A DNA stretch of 14,001 bases from Desulfobacteraceae bacterium (GTDB taxonomy: Bacteria > Desulfobacterota > Desulfobacteria > Desulfobacterales > UBA11574): assembly GCA_002868985.1 (NCBI GenBank), contig PKTV01000363.1, forward strand, positions 1 through 14,001, in the 5' to 3' direction. Shown one piece after another: positions 1-14,001 of this stretch. Each line of letters begins with the position of its first letter. Position 1 is the first letter of the stretch. The translations under genes were made by a program, and so were the position numbers. The notes below the pieces were generated by a model. It ran no database searches. It was not told where the DNA came from and saw only the letters and a list, made by a program, of their open reading frames with translations.

Positions 1-932
1 AGTGTTTTTGAATCCTTTTGAATTTCAAGGGCTGCTTCTTCAAAAATGTAATCCCGAAGACTTTGGGCGTTTTCGACCCTGCGATCGATGCTGTATCCTG
101 GCTGGTTGAAGGTGCCGAATATCATCTTCTTTAAGTCGATAAACTCATCGAAATCGTGCTTTGGCCGGGCTGTGGGGTCCCATTGAGGGTCTTGCAGATG
201 CTGTCTGGCGGAGACACAGAATATTTTTTGTATGGGTTTTTCCCAGGCGGTTTTGATAAATTCTAAAAATTCCGGAACAATGGTTTGGGTTAGTTCTTTC
301 TTGTCCTGGCGATCGCACTTGTTGATGACCACCACCAGGGCGTCTCCGTTGAACAGGCGTACGTAATGGGCCAGAAAATCCACATGATCCTTTCTTTTTG
401 GATTTTCCGCATCAAACATGCAAATGAGAATATCTGAAATGGCAATGGCGTTTTGGACCAGGTGAATGTGTTTTTCCTGCTGGGTGCTGTCCGTATCCGG
501 TGTGTCGATCAACAGGACATGTTCAAGGGAGGCAGCCGCCGGACTCGATCGCATGTTCACATGTCCGAGGCCGAGCTGTTCCTTCAAATAATCGGCATCT
601 TTTGCTTCATGGCTGAGGACAACGATGCTCTGAGTGGTGGGCCGTCGGTGTCCGGTTTCGGACAGATTGTCCACTTGTGCCAGGGCATTTAGCAGTGTCG
701 ATTTTCCGGAGCCGCACGGGCCGATGATGGTCACAATGAGCTTGCGTTCAAAGCGTGCTTCTAAATGATCGATCATGCGGAGCACTTCATCACACTGCTT
801 TCTAAGGCCTGCCCCGGGCTGCCACATGGGCGCCTGGTCAATGGCATTGCAAAGCATTTTAACGTCATGTTTAAAGCCTTCTATTTTCCCCAGAGCCTTG
901 ATGGGGCCGGTCTGTACATTTGAAATCATCAT
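1..932 (-). CDS. Dynamin-like/large GTPase domain protein, partial (C-terminus beyond the window)
   Basis: This gene begins at 932 on the minus strand and is open to the left edge, giving 310 visible residues. I translated it by hand. It has a full set of GTPase motifs: a P-loop GPCGSGKST at residues 71-79, a candidate switch-I threonine at about 99-100 (RRPTTQ), a G3-like LLIDTPDTD at 140-148, NKCD at 204-207 (guanine specificity) and a G5-like VSA at 240-242. The G3 glycine of DxxG is replaced by aspartate. The start codon overlaps the stop of the upstream GTPase gene in an ATGA arrangement, so the two are probably translationally coupled and the proteins probably made together. By family knowledge, paired bacterial dynamin-like proteins act on membranes as hetero-oligomers; that role here is inference. 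The missing C-terminus would show whether it has a helical stalk and a membrane-binding region. Confidence 0.85.
   Translation of the reverse strand, partial: MMISNVQTGPIKALGKIEGFKHDVKMLCNAIDQAPMWQPGAGLRKQCDEVLRMIDHLEARFERKLIVTIIGPCGSGKSTLLNALAQVDNLSETGHRRPTTQSIVVLSHEAKDADYLKEQLGLGHVNMRSSPAAASLEHVLLIDTPDTDSTQQEKHIHLVQNAIAISDILICMFDAENPKRKDHVDFLAHYVRLFNGDALVVVINKCDRQDKKELTQTIVPEFLEFIKTAWEKPIQKIFCVSARQHLQDPQWDPTARPKHDFDEFIDLKKMIFGTFNQPGYSIDRRVENAQSLRDYIFEEAALEIQKDSKT
929..932 (-). promoter_or_regulatory. ATGA stop/start overlap coupling the two GTPase genes
   Basis: On the minus strand the TGA stop of the 659-residue GTPase (931-929) overlaps the ATG of the next GTPase gene (932-930). Such overlaps usually mean reinitiation by the same ribosome and near-equal amounts of the two proteins. 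A second in-frame ATG follows at once (929-927). Confidence 0.75.
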
Positions 933-2908
933 GATATCATCGCCTTTTTACAGACTGCAATTTGATCTTGGATCTGTGTGATCAGAACATCAGACGATTG
1001 CAGCGCGTCTGTTGCATGTTGAATAATTTGACCGGTGATCTCTTTTTCGAAAAGATCCTGAACAGCTTTGAGCTTGTTGTTGAGCCAGGTCTGGATAATG
1101 GGGCCCAGCATCTCTTTGAGCTGATTCTGATCCGCCTTTTTAAGGCCAGTGGTGGCTGGAAGCGCAATCAGGGCATAAAGATCATGGAGCCCGAACAGTC
1201 CGGTGAGCTTCACCTTGATTCCCACAGCACCTACAGGATCTCCTGTTGAAAGGATATAGGTTACGGCAACAGTTGCCGGCACCACGTTTAAAAACGCGGC
1301 AAACATCTGTCGAATTTTGGTCCAGGTTCCCATTTTACTTCTAAACCCGTCGGCGAGGTTTCTGAGATCCTTTTCGATGTCGTGTGACAGCTCTGCGATG
1401 ATCTCTTGCTGTGATAGAATCGACTGCTGTATCGATTTCCAATCCATGCGACGCAGGGTTTCCTGGTGCGGAAAAACAACCGGATGGGCTGAAACAATAA
1501 ATGTTAACGCCCTTTTTTCATCTTCGGCTTCCTTTCGGGGATTTTCATGGTTTTTCAAGCCCCTTTGGGCTCTGAGCTCTTCAACGGCGTCTGCCATGCG
1601 CCGGGTCACCGGATCTTTTAAGGCGGCGGCCACCGATATTTCAGAGTTTAGCGTGTGAAAATGCATCCGGTTTACGGCACTCAGCAGGTCTTCTTTGATG
1701 GCATCATTAAAATGCCCCCGGCCAACGGTTTTCTCTTTATCAGAAAATGTGCCCTTAATCTTTTTTGCCGTCCCCACCAGCGCTTTAAACGGGAGTTCGA
1801 TAATATTGCCGGCTTTTCGCATGGCCTTGACAAAGGGAGGATCCGTTGACATCCATATGTCGACAAAACGTTTCATCACCAGGTCCACGGGAAAGTGTTG
1901 AAGGGCTTCATGAACGCAGTGACTCTGGGCCGTTTGCAGGGCATCAAGATAAAGATGAAGCTCCTGGTTGGAGGTTTTTGTTTGTCCAAGAAATTCTTGA
2001 GCCCGGTCCAAAACATCATTTAAGATGGACGACAGCAATTCGAGTCTGAGCTTTTCGGTATGGATACTTTTCAATGCATCGAAAAACGACGGATCTTCTT
2101 TTCCAGCAGGGCGCAAGGTCATGTATTTTTCACCCGAGGCCACTAAATTGTCTTCATCGGTGCGGTAAACGCCCAGAACATATTGATCTGCTGCGCTGCC
2201 GTAAAGATTTTTGGCAACGGTCATGGCGTGTTCCTGCACCTCCTGTGTCTCAAAGCTTGGATAAACGCGATAGATTAAAAAGCATTTTCGCATGCCGATG
2301 CTGGTGAGCATTTCAGAGATAAAATCCGTATTTTCGCGGTTGTTATAGTTGGAATTGGTGAAAATATAGATCAGGATGTCGGATGATTCCAGGGCCTGCC
2401 GGGAGACCTCCCGATTGATGTAGACCCCTTTTGCACCGGTATCGAAATCCGGCGTGTCCATTAATACCAGGTTTTTAGGAATGGCGTTGCTCAACACATA
2501 CACCGGATGCCCCGGGGTGGTCAGCTCATCTTTGTCTTTGAGGGGACGGGGCAAGGTGCCGAAAGGCTCAAACAGAGCGGAGAGAAAGTCGGGCTTTTCC
2601 AAAAGCTCCCCATGGGCCGAAAAAAGCACCCGGCGGTTGAGTCCTGCGCGGCCGCCGACGGGTGAGAGTCCCTCTTTTACGATGGAATTAAACAGCGTCG
2701 ATTTTCCGGATGACCCGCCGCCGCAGATGGTGGCCATCAAGGGGAAATCCGGAGACAGCTTTGTCAGCAATTTTTTGTCGATGATTTGGGCCCATGGTTC
2801 CGCCTCTTTGTGACGGTCGAGCCCAAGCACGTCCATGACGCGGGGAATATCGCCTCTCAGTTTTTTAAGAGCGTCAATCAGATTTTGATCATTCAGGTTT
2901 TTCATCAT
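929..2908 (-). CDS. Dynamin-like large GTPase, 659 aa, with C-terminal hydrophobic segment
   Basis: The N-terminal GTPase domain has a clear P-loop GGGSSGKST at residues 63-71 and a G3-like LVLMDTPDFD at 147-156, again with Asp in place of the DxxG glycine. No NKxD is visible where G4 should be: the strand FLIYRVY (210-216) is followed directly by PSFET. Base specificity may therefore be relaxed or supplied by the partner. The remaining 370 residues are mainly helical, with a hydrophobic region at about 535-590 (AAFLNVVPATVAVTYIL, then a stretch ending ALIALPATTGL) that could dip into or cross the membrane, as in bacterial dynamin-like proteins. The start is the first of two adjacent ATG codons (2908 and 2905); no convincing Shine-Dalgarno sequence precedes either. 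The 3' end overlaps the next GTPase gene by 4 bases. The cargo and exact role are unknown. Confidence is high for a GTPase and moderate for the dynamin-like label. Confidence 0.85.
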   Translation of the reverse strand: MMKNLNDQNLIDALKKLRGDIPRVMDVLGLDRHKEAEPWAQIIDKKLLTKLSPDFPLMATICGGGSSGKSTLFNSIVKEGLSPVGGRAGLNRRVLFSAHGELLEKPDFLSALFEPFGTLPRPLKDKDELTTPGHPVYVLSNAIPKNLVLMDTPDFDTGAKGVYINREVSRQALESSDILIYIFTNSNYNNRENTDFISEMLTSIGMRKCFLIYRVYPSFETQEVQEHAMTVAKNLYGSAADQYVLGVYRTDEDNLVASGEKYMTLRPAGKEDPSFFDALKSIHTEKLRLELLSSILNDVLDRAQEFLGQTKTSNQELHLYLDALQTAQSHCVHEALQHFPVDLVMKRFVDIWMSTDPPFVKAMRKAGNIIELPFKALVGTAKKIKGTFSDKEKTVGRGHFNDAIKEDLLSAVNRMHFHTLNSEISVAAALKDPVTRRMADAVEELRAQRGLKNHENPRKEAEDEKRALTFIVSAHPVVFPHQETLRRMDWKSIQQSILSQQEIIAELSHDIEKDLRNLADGFRSKMGTWTKIRQMFAAFLNVVPATVAVTYILSTGDPVGAVGIKVKLTGLFGLHDLYALIALPATTGLKKADQNQLKEMLGPIIQTWLNNKLKAVQDLFEKEITGQIIQHATDALQSSDVLITQIQDQIAVCKKAMIS

Positions 2909-8482: not shown

Positions 8483-8908
8483 CTATTGAGTTATTAGTCG
8501 ATCCAGAATCAGCCCATGAAAACTTTCTTTTCCAGGAGAGGAGAAAAACCAACCCAGGTGGGTAAGGCAGATGAGACAAACAGCCACCCGCCAGCCATAT
8601 CCTGCAAACCAGCTGAATTCATCTGATGGAGGACCCACATGGCCGCATCCTTTAACGGCGGTGAAACATCCGATTTCAAAAACGATGCCATGTGGATTGG
8701 CAAACGTATGCTGGTGGGACCCCTGGACGCTGATGCGGTCATCAGAGCTCGCGAGGATGTTTCGGCATTGACGGCAGCGGATATATTCCTCTTGCTCCAG
8801 TATTTCCTTTTCGGTTTCGTCTTCAACCACACTTACAGGCATCTCATCGTCTTGATTTTCAGGTGGAACACGAAACAGATAAGAGAAAGCCGGATAAGAT
8901 GGAATCAT
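8483..8908 (-). CDS. Stand-alone CULT domain protein (cereblon-type thalidomide-binding fold), 141 aa
   Basis: Residues about 42-137 match the C-terminal CULT domain of human cereblon by recalled alignment. There are two zinc cysteine pairs, C45-x2-C48 (RCRQC, the same as in human CRBN) and C111-x2-C114; the NPHG turn (71-74); and the segment PSDEFSWFAGYGW (94-106) with C-terminal HLGWFF (117-122). The three tryptophans of the imide-binding cage are all present (W100, W106, W120, matching human W380, W386, W400), as is the glutamate matching E377 (E97). The residue matching human H378 is Phe (F98). There is no Lon domain, signal peptide or membrane helix, so it should be a small cytoplasmic zinc-bound ligand-binding protein. 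Residues 1-41 are proline- and acid-rich. AGAAGG precedes the ATG by about seven bases. The natural ligand in bacteria is not settled; cyclic imides, uracil-like compounds or imide-ended proteins are candidates. Confidence 0.88.
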   Translation of the reverse strand: MIPSYPAFSYLFRVPPENQDDEMPVSVVEDETEKEILEQEEYIRCRQCRNILASSDDRISVQGSHQHTFANPHGIVFEIGCFTAVKGCGHVGPPSDEFSWFAGYGWRVAVCLICLTHLGWFFSSPGKESFHGLILDRLITQ

Positions 8909-9030
8909 TTTTAACCTTCTTTGGATTTAGTTCACTTTGTCATTTGCCGGTATGTCTGGTTCAGACTACAATGTTTTCGGATGGATTTCAATATGGTGTT
9001 GCCTATTCACTCAATTTCATCCGCCTCGTT

Positions 9031-11054: not shown

Positions 11055-11612
11055 CTACTCAAATAAAAAATAAGGTTCTTTATCCTTCTTTTTGTTTAAC
11101 ATGTCACGTACTTTTCGCAATGTATCCGAATCGGCCTGATGAATTAATTTAGCAAGTTTACTGCGTTCATCTGACATGTCTTCGGTTATATCTTCTTTAC
11201 CTTCCCACTCTACCCCCAAAATTTTACACGTCGATTTAATCAGATTGGTTGTGGAGATCGGTTTATCCAATATTACTCTTGGGCGCACGTTCGCTGTCAA
11301 GGCCATAAATTCCTTAATTTGGTCGCTTCCCATGTCATCACGGGCATGAGCGGTGATGATAATGATGGGCAATTTGGCCCACTTTTTTTGTTTTCTCAGC
11401 TCTCGAATAACCTTGATCCCGGGCATTCTCGGCATGACCATATCGAGGGTCATTAAATCAGGAGAAAACACGTCAACCTTTTCGAGGGCATCTATGCCGT
11501 CAACAGCTGTTTCGACGATAAAACCGGCATCTTCTAAACAGGCTGCTAGAAAATTACGAACATCCGGTTCATCATCCACGACCAGAATTCTTTTTTCAGA
11601 TGCTTTTGTCAT
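11055..11612 (-). CDS. Receiver-domain response regulator with short C-terminal extension, 185 aa
   Basis: The CheY-like receiver domain spans about residues 7-130: acidic pocket D13-D14 (VVDDEP), phospho-acceptor D57 in LMTLDMVMPRMPG, the switch threonine T87 in IIIITAHA and the conserved lysine in LDKP (K117). After it come about 55 charged residues (including DTLRKVRDMLNKKKDKE) with no recognised DNA-binding, enzymatic or other output domain, so its action is probably through protein contacts. It lies downstream of a soluble PAS histidine kinase on the same strand, 242 bases away, and is its likely phosphorylation partner. An ATG at 11618 is in frame but abuts the Shine-Dalgarno; the ATG at 11612 has AAAGGAG at the ideal six-base spacing, so I chose it. 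Starting at 11618 would add only two residues. Confidence 0.88.
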   Translation of the reverse strand: MTKASEKRILVVDDEPDVRNFLAACLEDAGFIVETAVDGIDALEKVDVFSPDLMTLDMVMPRMPGIKVIRELRKQKKWAKLPIIIITAHARDDMGSDQIKEFMALTANVRPRVILDKPISTTNLIKSTCKILGVEWEGKEDITEDMSDERSKLAKLIHQADSDTLRKVRDMLNKKKDKEPYFLFE

Positions 11613-11854
11613 TTTCATCTCCTTTATGTGAAGAAATTAGCATTATTTGGACGATATCATTAAAAAGAATGTTAATGAAGAGAGGGGGTGTTCGTGGATC
11701 TTTATTAAACGACCTCCCTCAAGAAAAGACATTACGGTTTTATTTTAATCGGATAATATTTCCGCAATTAATTTCAATATCCTCCTTTTCGATATAATTT
11801 TTGATATCGTTTTGTTTTGCTCTTCTGTTTGATGTTCTTCATGAGAAATTCGGG
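11613..11854. other. Spacer between histidine kinase and response regulator genes
   Basis: This 242-base AT-rich spacer contains two potential RNA structures on the minus strand. One is CGATAT (11790-11795) with ATATCG (11804-11809). The other is a longer imperfect GC-richer stem whose arms are near 11684-11697 and 11714-11727. Either could lower read-through from the kinase gene and let the regulator be made at a different level. An isolated AAAAGGAGG at about 11780-11788 (minus) is followed only by a ten-codon TTG-started frame, not counted as a gene. Confidence 0.3.
11619..11625 (-). promoter_or_regulatory. Ribosome binding site deciding the response regulator start
   Basis: AAAGGAG on the minus strand directly touches the ATG at 11618 (spacing zero) but stands six bases before the second ATG at 11612. 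That spacing favours the second codon as the true start. Confidence 0.7.
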
Positions 11855-13678
11855 TCAGGCTTCTTTTTCAACTAGTTTGGGCAAACGCCTTCGTGGAAGT
11901 CTGATGCTGAAAGTTGTTCCTTTCCCGGGCTTGGATTTCAAATCTATTGTTCCACCATGCTCGTGAACAATTTTCTTGGTCATTAACAGTCCTATGCCGG
12001 AACCACCCAAACCCTTTGTGGTAAAAAAGGTTGTAAAAACCTTACGCTTTATCTCATAGTCCATACCGCATCCGTTGTCAGCCACTTCATATATAATCGT
12101 ATTGTACTCTTCAAACGTCCGAACCGTTACATAACACGAATTTTCGTCACTCATCTGACAGGCATCTATGGCATTACCCACAAGGTTTGTCAGGCATTCG
12201 TGCATGCTTTCAAAATCAATGTGAGCTGGATCGATATCCCCTATTTTTTCGTATTTTAGCGTTATACCCAGTTTATCGGCTTTGACGACGTATAAATCGA
12301 CCACCTCTTTTGCAATTTCAGCAGGATCACAAATTTTAACTTGAATTTCACGGCCTTTGGAAAAGCTTAAAAATGCTTTTACAAATGTTGAAATCCGTTC
12401 GATATTCCGTGCCAACATTTCCATGCCTTTTTGAATGCGGTCGATGTTTCCTTTAGCCAAACCGGTTTTCAGCATATACATACCGCCTTCAAGGGCGGTA
12501 TTCAGATTCTTAATGCCATGAGCCAGTCCGGCAACCGTTTGCCCCACAGCGGAAAGGCGTTCGGCTTCTAGCTTTTCTCTTTCAAGCTGTTTGATTTCCC
12601 TTAGATCCTGAACTGAAAAGGCCATGCCGATTGATTTGTCGTCAACCATCAGCTTGTTGCCCACCAGACGTACCGGAAAAGTCTTACCGTCAATGGTTTT
12701 AACCTCCGCTTCCGGCAAATAAACATGTTCGCGCTGCTCGAAAACCTTGGCCAAAAAATCGTTAGGGAGCATAGCGGTAAAATCTTCTCTCGAAACCACT
12801 TGGTTATCCTTGATTTTAAAAAATTTTCGGGCTGCGGGGTTGAAAATAGTCACTTTTCCCTTTTCATTCACCGCAAAGATACCGTCCATAGACGTTGAAA
12901 TGATGGTATTCAGATACGTATGCGCAAATTTCAATCCATCCTGCAGTTTCATCGTTTCCGTAACGTCAACCGCCATCTCCAATACGACATCAAAACTGCC
13001 GTCTTTGCGTTTCAGCGGTACGGTGATCACATGTAAATGGAGGGGTTGTTCTCCTTTGGATTTCCAAGCATGATACCCGGTGTGTATTTGGCCGTCTTCA
13101 AACGTTTGTCTGGCCGTACATTCGCTGCATTTATGTTTCAATCCTTTGAGTGTTTCGAAGCAGAGTTTGCCCTCGGGATTTCCGATGGAATCTCTGAGCC
13201 GTTTGTTTGCCTTTACGATCCGGAAGTTTTTGTCAATTAAAAGAATATTGCACGGAACCTGGTCAAAGAGAATCTGATGTTCATCTCGAATCTGAGTTGC
13301 TTCTGTAATGTTGGTGAAAATATGGACGATATAGGGGAAATTACCATCTTCGTCAACGATAGGGGAAGCGTGCTGCAAGTAATTTATATGCCGGCCGTTT
13401 TTGTCATACCCCACTTCTTCGTTTACACGGGGCGTGCCGTCTGTAAAGGTTGATGAACTTTCACAGTGAGCGCACATTTCATTTTGGCTTTTATAGGCGT
13501 TGTAACATTTACGATTTTTCCAATCGCCGAACAATTGTTCAAAAGTGTTGTTGGCATAAACCAGATTATACTTCGGATCGATTATGGCGATTCCCAAAGG
13601 GATGGTTTCAATTAATTGTAAATTCACCCATCTTTCAAGATCGGATGTTGGTCCATTTTCTGTTGTTGTTTTTGTCAT
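11855..13678 (-). CDS. Soluble multi-PAS sensor histidine kinase, 607 aa
   Basis: The order is PAS (about 22-125), PAS (about 135-243), PAS (about 251-362), a dimerisation/phospho-acceptor helix with H387 in AGLAHGIKNLNTALEGG, then a HATPase domain. The ATPase has the N box ECLTNLVGNAIDA (N498, N502), the G1 box VADNGCGMD (D534), FTTFFTTKG and GLGGSGIGLLM (556-566). There is no membrane helix, so it senses something in the cytoplasm. The first two PAS domains each contain C-x10-C-x2-C (C58, C69, C72 and C173, C184, C187), which may hold a metal or redox group; the third lacks it. The acceptor box is HGIKN rather than the common HEIRN. The frame opens at a TTG at 13690; no good Shine-Dalgarno precedes it, and I prefer the ATG at 13678 (weak GGCGAG upstream). 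The partner regulator lies downstream. Confidence 0.88.
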   Translation of the reverse strand: MTKTTTENGPTSDLERWVNLQLIETIPLGIAIIDPKYNLVYANNTFEQLFGDWKNRKCYNAYKSQNEMCAHCESSSTFTDGTPRVNEEVGYDKNGRHINYLQHASPIVDEDGNFPYIVHIFTNITEATQIRDEHQILFDQVPCNILLIDKNFRIVKANKRLRDSIGNPEGKLCFETLKGLKHKCSECTARQTFEDGQIHTGYHAWKSKGEQPLHLHVITVPLKRKDGSFDVVLEMAVDVTETMKLQDGLKFAHTYLNTIISTSMDGIFAVNEKGKVTIFNPAARKFFKIKDNQVVSREDFTAMLPNDFLAKVFEQREHVYLPEAEVKTIDGKTFPVRLVGNKLMVDDKSIGMAFSVQDLREIKQLEREKLEAERLSAVGQTVAGLAHGIKNLNTALEGGMYMLKTGLAKGNIDRIQKGMEMLARNIERISTFVKAFLSFSKGREIQVKICDPAEIAKEVVDLYVVKADKLGITLKYEKIGDIDPAHIDFESMHECLTNLVGNAIDACQMSDENSCYVTVRTFEEYNTIIYEVADNGCGMDYEIKRKVFTTFFTTKGLGGSGIGLLMTKKIVHEHGGTIDLKSKPGKGTTFSIRLPRRRLPKLVEKEA

Positions 13679-14001
13679 CTGACTCGCCAATAAATATGTT
13701 TTTTATCTTCAACGGACGGTTGTCCAAATGAAAATCTTTTTGAGCACTTATGGAAACGTTTTTTATTTATAAATCTTGGCAAAGTGGCAAAGAGAAGGAT
13801 GTTTGATTCCGTCTGTTTGGGCAAAAGAACGTATTCTCGAATTGCCCCAAACGAGCCCTATATGTATCAAAAACGCTTCAGAAACAGTCCTTCATTTAAA
13901 TTTTTGCCGATCGATAACAACGAAATCTGTGTTCATATTCATTTATAACAAAACAATTTTAAAACACAAGAAAAACTTTTAACCAATTGATATTTATTCA
14001 T
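13679..14001. other. AT-rich region upstream of the histidine kinase, to the window edge
   Basis: Nothing coding is convincing. A hairpin with GTTTGGGCAA (13815-13824) and TTGCCCCAAAC (13842-13852), ten pairs with one bulged base, lies about 140-175 bases before the kinase start. It could sit in the leader or be an operator or an upstream terminator. The promoter for the kinase must be in this stretch or beyond the window, but no clear -35/-10 pair was found. Confidence 0.35.

What the first reader, a model, noticed from the sequence alone, without database searches (positions are those of the whole stretch)
8483..8908. Stand-alone bacterial cereblon-type CULT domain with intact zinc site and tryptophan cage
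The sequence shows C45/C48 and C111/C114, NPHG, SWFAGYGW and HLGW in the order and spacing of the human CRBN thalidomide-binding domain, with all three cage tryptophans. Single-domain CULT proteins are known in proteobacteria (a Magnetospirillum homologue binds thalidomide and uracil-type ligands), but their job is not known. Human cereblon recognises C-terminal cyclic imides on damaged proteins, so this protein could sense imide-damaged proteins or a small cyclic imide. The acidic, proline-rich N-terminal 41 residues are outside the domain and may carry a partner site.
Basis: partly seen in the sequence, partly recalled or inferred. Interest (0 to 1): 0.75.

Follow-up and report, generated by a model that had tools for sequence, protein, structure and literature searches.

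The report
Bacterial stand-alone cereblon-type CULT protein
This bacterial gene encodes the same small pocket domain with which human cereblon binds thalidomide and damaged protein ends; such bacterial proteins were already known, but this one carries a conserved tail, and a related bacterial group sits beside a Lon-like protease gene, which suggests how their unknown job could be tested.

Summary

Added here: (1) a mostly single-copy gene in 154 of 242 genomes of its order, not found in the plasmid, phage or viral collections searched. (2) Its 41-residue N-terminal extension, modelled mostly as disordered, carries a conserved hydrophobic-[FL]-R-x-P motif. (3) A distant CULT clade ('type B') lies beside a LonC-type protease gene and a bifunctional-nuclease gene in 5 of 8 genomes, in two gene orders; all 8 encode that LonC.

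Best explanation: an adaptor that recognises cyclic-imide protein ends and passes them to a protease. The window's own clade shows no protease linkage, so this is inference (0.4). Its pocket is more human-like than MsCI4's.

The parts
8483..8908 (-). CULT-domain protein gene, 141 aa, single copy in its genome assembly
8492..8785 (-). CULT domain (residues 42-139), beta-tent fold
8765..8776 (-). first zinc motif C45-x-x-C48
   Evidence: present in 59 of 59 sequences, window included
8567..8578 (-). second zinc motif C111-x-x-C114
   Evidence: present in 59 of 59 sequences, window included
8687..8698 (-). N71-P-H73-G74 loop; H73 corresponds to human His353, which is Ala52 in MsCI4
8591..8611 (-). 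W100 to W106, two cage tryptophans (human Trp380, Trp386)
   Evidence: 59 of 59; correspondence
8543..8551 (-). W120 (human Trp400) and F122, Phe at the base of the cage as in human, Tyr101 in MsCI4
8786..8908 (-). 41-residue acidic N-terminal tail, modelled mostly as disordered
   Evidence: residues 1-5 and 15-36 under pLDDT 50; composition
8864..8878 (-). conserved tail motif L11-F12-R13-V14-P15
   Evidence: R13 0.92 and P15 0.93 in a 201-row alignment with many near-duplicates; hydrophobic-[FL]-R in 35 of 81 divergent tails against a shuffle mean of 6.1; no nonsynonymous difference at residues 9-17 among the five closest sequences
8915..8922 (-). AAAGAAGG, likely ribosome-binding site of the gene

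Best explanation
It is a soluble (no signal or membrane stretch seen by eye), zinc-pinned CULT protein whose tri-tryptophan cage binds a cyclic imide group, most likely the aspartimide or glutarimide left at the C-terminus of damaged proteins, the ligand class of the same cage in cereblon. It works as a substrate-recognition adaptor: the cage holds the damaged end while the disordered, acidic N-terminal tail, through its [FL]-R-x-P motif, docks on a partner, most likely an intracellular protease or its unfoldase, so that the damaged protein is destroyed without ubiquitin. Shown: the domain, the intact cage and zinc residues, the conserved tail motif, and, in a related clade only, genetic linkage to a Lon-like protease. 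Inferred: the ligand in the cell, the docking role of the tail, the identity of the partner in the window's clade.
For: Sequence and fold. Cage conserved in 59 of 59 genome-derived sequences (window included) and in 26 of 26 type-B rows, of which at least two are the same protein; this suggests that ligand binding, not only the fold, is kept. Cereblon's domain recognises C-terminal cyclic imides (PMC12117711, passages; PDB title 9nr3 'CRBN-DDB1 in complex with GLUL-cN'). Tail: hydrophobic-[FL]-R in 35 of 81 divergent tails (300 shuffles: mean 6.1, maximum 15), [FL]R.P in 29 of 81 (mean 2.35, maximum 9); 0 nonsynonymous against 10 synonymous differences at residues 9-17 in ten pairs of five close sequences. 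Protease linkage in type B: CULT on the same strand as and next to LonC-BFN in 5 of 8 genomes (three CULT-LonC-BFN, two LonC-BFN-CULT, the latter two from one genus); all 8 encode this LonC at 61-100% identity. In the one order surveyed whole, the 6 type-B genomes are all among 10 of 85 counted as having that LonC, hypergeometric 4.8e-7 ignoring phylogeny. ClpS is a precedent for a small degron-binding domain whose N-terminal extension engages the protease machine (PMC8138137, passages). Present in 154 of 242 genomes of the order, own genome counted: a lineage-wide rather than mobile distribution.
Against: The window clade shows no protease linkage: none of the 80 loci fetched with its alignment contains a LonC gene at E<=1e-8 (many loci are short), the window's own assembly has no AAA_32 match (89.7% complete), and its neighbours vary between clades. 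Four of the 10 LonC genomes in the surveyed order lack a type-B CULT (G503, G509, G517, G518). In 3 of 8 type-B genomes the two genes are apart. Two intermediate sequences (G367, G441; E 1e-34 to 1e-35 with the type-B model) have only the other LonC class (39-41% identity); counting them as type B would give 5 of 10 linked and 8 of 10 with that LonC. A LonC-type enzyme studied before lacks ATPase activity and degrades only unfolded proteins (PMC3391209, passages), and the linked LonC has no canonical Walker A, so it is not a classical adaptor-fed unfoldase. Type-B proteins have a short GGNG tail instead of [FL]RxP (by eye), so the two lines of evidence come from different clades. Synteny in related genomes is not independent evidence. 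No binding was tested. MsCI4 has also been solved with deoxyuridine, so a nucleoside ligand is open.
Confidence: 0.4

Rival explanations
1. Small-molecule sensor or buffer: the cage binds a free metabolite such as uracil, uridine, dihydrouracil, hydantoin or another cyclic imide, and ligand binding changes an interaction made by the tail. No protein degradation is involved.
For: MsCI4 complexes with deoxyuridine and thalidomide are solved (titles); a cytidylate-kinase-like gene lies on the downstream side of CULT, 1 to 3 genes away, in 14 of 81 loci (the window among them and its own gene map).
Against: The kinase gene is on the opposite strand in 14 of 14, so convergent and not co-transcribed with CULT; the 12 members that one search prints all come from loci L060-L076, the window's sub-clade. 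No pyrimidine-catabolism gene was recognised among the neighbours scanned with Pfam, which are a sample.
Confidence: 0.3
2. Cyclic-imide quality control without a protease: the protein only binds and shields, or helps to hydrolyse or repair, imide-damaged ends.
For: No conserved neighbour in the window's clade; small, very conserved domain; relatives of the fold include the repair enzyme MsrB (PMC4287342, passages).
Against: Cereblon's CULT is described as a recognition domain, and no obvious catalytic residues beyond cage and zinc site stand out among the invariant columns (judged by eye).
Confidence: 0.2
3. The tail motif is an internal element that folds back on the domain (for example over the cage) and is not a partner site.
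For: Residues 6-14, which include part of the motif, are not among the stretches under pLDDT 50 while both sides are.
Against: Confidence there is still low (11 residues of the whole model lie at 50-70) and no contact could be inspected; tails differ between clades.
Confidence: 0.1

Closest known systems
MsCI4 (MGR_0879, cereblon isoform 4 of Magnetospirillum gryphiswaldense)
   Same: Stand-alone bacterial CULT; 42% identity over 101 superposed residues, rmsd 0.9 A; three cage Trp, two CxxC, Phe at the human His378 position.
   Different: Window protein has Phe122 where MsCI4 has Tyr101 and His73 where MsCI4 has Ala52 (both as in human), C88 which MsCI4 lacks (C81 is shared), and an acidic tail with the [FL]RxP motif.
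Thalidomide-binding domain of human cereblon (CRBN)
   Same: Same fold and cage, 33% identity, rmsd 1.2 A to 9odr_D.
   Different: No LON domain in the window protein; Phe98 instead of His378.
Type-B bacterial CULT clade (named here; G190, G348, G506, G512, G513, G516, G193, G445)
   Same: Cage and zinc residues identical in 26 of 26 aligned rows.
   Different: Separate clade in a FastTree tree with 59 other sequences (support 1.0), GGNG tail instead of [FL]RxP, Tyr at the cage base, T and A/V instead of C81 and C88, often beside LonC and BFN genes.
ClpS and SspB protease adaptors
   Same: Working analogy only: small degron-binding domain plus flexible docking tail (PMC8138137, passages).
   Different: Different folds (recalled, not tested); no interaction shown for the window protein.
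Yippee / Mis18 (PF03226)
   Same: Neighbouring beta-tent family (PMC4287342, passages).
   Different: Window protein scores under the Pfam cut-off (20.5 against 26.6 bits); one type-B protein of two tested passes it (33.1 bits).

Membership tests
CULT domain family | Significant sequence similarity to known CULT domains | tested here: met
   phmmer 2.8e-26 to MsCI4 4v32, 7.3e-16 to cereblon 8rq1
CULT domain family | Two CxxC zinc motifs | tested here: met
   C45/C48 and C111/C114; 59 of 59 sequences, window included
CULT domain family | Three cage tryptophans | tested here: met
   W100, W106, W120; 59 of 59 sequences, window included
CULT domain family | Beta-tent fold superposable on CULT structures | tested here: met
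CULT domain family | Binds thalidomide, uridine or cyclic imides | not testable with these tools
   needs a binding assay
Bacterial CULT group of Lupas et al. 2015 | Bacterial protein with CULT as its only recognisable domain | tested here: met
   no other Pfam domain over its cut-off. The paper says the group's proteins consist entirely of the domain; the window protein has 41 further residues with a conserved motif
Cereblon (full CRBN, E3 substrate receptor) | LON domain fused to CULT | tested here: not met
   141-aa ORF without a LON match; the genome's three LON-domain matches lie on other contigs in open frames of 787-842 aa
Yippee-Mis18 (PF03226) | Score over Pfam gathering cut-off | tested here: not met
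   20.5 against 26.6 bits
Protease adaptor (works like) | Flexible tail with a conserved docking motif | tested here: inconclusive
   a conserved motif in a tail modelled mostly as disordered; that it docks on anything is not shown
Protease adaptor (works like) | Genetic linkage to a protease in the window's own clade | tested here: not met
   no LonC gene in the 80 loci found with the window clade's alignment; no AAA_32 match in the own assembly
Protease adaptor (works like) | Physical delivery of substrate to a protease | not testable with these tools
   needs biochemistry

The most novel reading that the evidence does not exclude
Bacteria have a ubiquitin-free C-degron pathway for imide-damaged proteins: CULT proteins recognise the cyclic-imide end and hand the protein to a Lon-family protease (encoded alongside in the type-B clade) or, in the window's clade, to another protease docked by the [FL]RxP tail. 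Cereblon's pairing of a LON domain with a CULT domain would then echo an older CULT-Lon partnership.
Probability: 0.25. Interest if true: 0.9.

Novelty: new member of a known kind. Interest (0 to 1): 0.6.

Why it matters
I found no paper that says what bacterial CULT proteins do in the cell, and the natural substrates of human cereblon are an active question. This case gives two concrete handles: a conserved tail motif to use as bait, and a CULT-LonC-nuclease gene cluster in a related clade to reconstitute. The window protein also carries naturally the Phe and His that MsCI4 lacks as a stand-in for the human drug pocket (PMC8900816, passages), so it might serve as a crystallisation surrogate; that is inference.

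Tried and rejected
Mobile-element origin: no relatives in 72,556 plasmid records, 50,697 phage records or viral contigs (16 pattern hits, none confirmed). Domain fusions: the long open frames around the relatives in G020 and G192 (240 and 312 aa) were read in full, that of G340 only in its first 50 residues; by eye they look like upstream extensions without a second domain, but none was scanned with Pfam, and other long frames (for example G533, G535, G582, G645) were not examined. Universal operon partner: none; the commonest neighbouring family occurs in 18 of 81 loci, many of them short, and 20 distant loci showed no common partner. The ADP-ribosylglycohydrolase gene downstream of CULT in 6 of 81 loci (Pfam on one of them) is absent from the window. 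Extra cysteine pair C81/C88 as a second metal or disulfide site: in 29 phylum-level sequences C81 is kept in 26 and C88 in 23, and several have one without the other, so a strict pair is not supported. Rfam: no match at gathering score in the window. Promoter and terminator scan: only weak consensus sites. The first structure model (21-row alignment) was mediocre, mean pLDDT 66.2, the other four models 57.4, 45.5, 41.9, 40.6; the 69-row alignment gave 80.7 with the others at 79.7-80.4 and is the one used. Closer kinship of type B than of the window clade to cereblon: not shown by bit scores (best cereblon chain 62.6 against 61.8), so not claimed. The first neighbourhood pass lost the CULT gene in 21 of 81 loci because of overlapping spurious frames and was replaced.

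Caveats on counts. Presence counts include the window's own genome; searches scored at most 10 and 16 candidates per genome. The genome-contig loci were found with patterns HTFANPHG and VFEIGCF, so residue frequencies are biased at those positions; one search uses whole-genome hits instead, with the window as one of its 59. The motif was first seen in the near family and then counted, so the shuffle test is not blind; 12 of the 29 phylum-level tails (L031-L059) carry it by the marks, one of them right next to the CxxC. Tails are the 45 residues upstream whatever the start codon, so some may include untranslated sequence. Type B: 8 of 85 genomes of that order match a broader CULT model; 6 pass the type-B model, G092 and G504 were left out as other types. 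LonC assignment in those 85: 10 counted (8, 2); of 13 high-scoring genomes of family f107, 5 were checked, are about 48% identical and, with the other 8, were counted as lacking it; if these 13 and G504 were counted as having it, the hypergeometric value would be about 3e-4 (worked out by hand). Weaker AAA_32 hits were checked only for genomes given; that call was given 71 chosen genomes.

Full report
Observation. The ORF at 8483-8908 is on the minus strand, 141 codons plus stop, ATG start. The nearest Pfam model, Yippee-Mis18, is under its cut-off; NCBIfam has no match. A database search scored 654 of 657 candidates at E<=1e-3; the 120 listed cover 84-100% of the query, the best at 91% identity.

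Reality as a gene. The start is preceded by AAAGAAGG, seen in 7 of 10 upstream sequences printed, window included. In five close sequences (ten pairs) dN/dS is 0.14 over the domain; in twelve comparisons with more distant relatives it is 0.07, with nearly saturated synonymous sites. In its assembly the gene is single copy. It occurs in 43 of 60 relatives, 154 of 242 genomes of the order (96 of 131 genera) and 39 of 395 genomes drawn across the phylum; each count includes the window's own genome. A second copy is listed for G540 and G588 and G019. Of the 80 named loci the titles are mostly Desulfobacterales, Desulfobacteraceae or Deltaproteobacteria assemblies; the nearest is 94% identical.

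Pocket. In whole-genome hits all four Cys and three Trp are present in 59 of 59 sequences, the window's among them. The window has Phe122 at the cage base, as human, where MsCI4 has Tyr101, and His73 where human has His353 and MsCI4 Ala52; it shares Phe with MsCI4 at human His378 (correspondences from PMC8900816, passages, and the alignment). Among the 30 sequences, window included, Phe122 is kept in 29 and His73 in 26; among 29 phylum-level sequences the cage base is Tyr in 15 and Phe in 14, and His73 is kept in 7. The human-like pocket is thus a feature of the window's neighbourhood, not of bacterial CULTs at large.

Tail. The 2015 description says bacterial CULT proteins consist entirely of the domain (PMC4287342, section 7 read). 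Here 41 residues precede it. R13 and P15 are conserved at 0.92 and 0.93 in a 201-row alignment (window, 80 loci, 120 proteins, many near-duplicates). Of 139 tails, reduced to 81 with under 45% identity, 35 hold hydrophobic-[FL]-R (300 shuffles: mean 6.1, maximum 15) and 29 hold [FL]-R-x-P (mean 2.35, maximum 9). Residues 9-17 have no nonsynonymous difference in the five closest sequences, while residues 18-41 have dN/dS 0.51 there. The tail therefore carries a short motif under selection in an otherwise loose segment; 46 of the 81 tails do not show it.

Neighbourhood of the window clade. In 81 loci no family occurs near CULT in more than 18. RmuC, a convergent cytidylate-kinase-like gene, Usp and an aminotransferase mark the window's sub-clade; other sub-clades have EF-G with an ATPase-like gene (weak KaiC match), asparagine synthase, a CLC-like channel (named by eye) or a 180-aa protein without a Pfam match. 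None is common to the clade.

Type-B CULT. Among distant phylum hits one CULT gene (G190) is followed after 87 bp by a LonC-type gene (AAA_32, LonB_AAA-LID, LonC_helical, Lon_C). In the whole order of that genome 8 of 85 genomes match a broad CULT model and 6 the type-B model. In five of the six the cluster is intact on one strand: CULT-LonC-BFN in G190, G348, G516 and LonC-BFN-CULT in G512 and G513, which share a genus. In G506 CULT and LonC are on different contigs. G193 and G445, from other families, also have both genes on different contigs, G445 with a LonC broken at a contig end. The eight type-B genomes encode this LonC at 61-100% identity. Four genomes have it without type-B CULT: G503, G509, G517, G518. 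Six of the eight (G190, G348, G506, G512, G513, G516) also carry a full or nearly full second LonC, at 38-42% identity; only G190's was looked at in context (5.5 kb) and has no CULT there. Two intermediate CULTs (G367, G441) have only that other class. Type-B CULTs form a clade (support 1.0) with the same cage, a GGNG tail and no [FL]RxP (by eye). Five linked LonCs show no canonical Walker A in a pattern scan, and a LonA-style serine pattern also found nothing; a GDSAS motif and the lysine pattern are there, the former read by eye in G190's. They resemble in this the Meiothermus enzyme that degrades only unfolded proteins without ATP (PMC3391209, passages).

Mechanism. Human CULT recognises C-terminal aspartimide and glutarimide (PMC12117711, passages). 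Put together, the most economical reading is an adaptor that binds damaged ends and brings them to a protease, with a clade-specific tail for docking. For the window protein the protease step is inference: its clade has no such linkage, its own assembly lacks AAA_32 though same-genus G001 and G004 have the unlinked LonC class, and it has three separate LON-domain genes. A nucleoside or small-imide sensor remains the main rival.

Literature. Searches in the open-licence library listed no paper that, by title or the abstract start shown, reports a cellular function for a bacterial CULT protein or a CULT-LonC link; one search was swamped by 'bacterial culture', and subscription papers are not held. 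Seen as passages: PMC4287342 (plus its section 7), PMC8900816, PMC12117711, PMC3391209, PMC8138137; PMC11974815 as a listing and an empty word search.

Verdict. Observation confirmed; family known; ordinary as a domain, but its lineage-wide presence, the tail motif and the protease linkage in a related clade make an open question testable.

Noticed in passing
L156, L171, L174, L172, L175 (genomes G190, G348, G516, G512, G513): A distant CULT clade is encoded beside a LonC-type Lon-like protease and a bifunctional-nuclease-domain protein, in two gene orders; the eight genomes with this CULT all encode that LonC.
   Followed up: yes
EF-G in 11 of 81 loci (L093, L105, L110, L111, L112, L122, L125, L126, L132, L134, L136) and in L144, L145; asparagine synthase family in 10 of 81: In another sub-clade CULT often lies between a divergent asparagine-synthase / GCS2-like group and a downstream EF-G gene followed by an ATPase-like gene.
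   Followed up: partly
L060:8584-9408 and L065, L068, L073, L074, L075: ADP-ribosylglycohydrolase-family gene downstream of CULT on the same strand in 6 of 81 loci (Pfam run on L060 only), missing from the window itself.
   Followed up: partly
window 929-2908, minus: 659-aa dynamin-family GTPase (Dynamin_N over cut-off).
   Followed up: no
window 11055-13690, minus: Response regulator next to a histidine-kinase-like protein with PAS domains.
   Followed up: no
window 8645-8668, minus (residues C81 to C88): Two extra cysteines, C81 and C88, kept in 30 of 30 sequences of the near set (window included), not strictly paired in distant ones, absent from type B.
   Followed up: partly
G000 contigs C535, C367, C83: The window's genome has three LON-domain matches in long open frames, probably three Lon proteases.
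   Followed up: no
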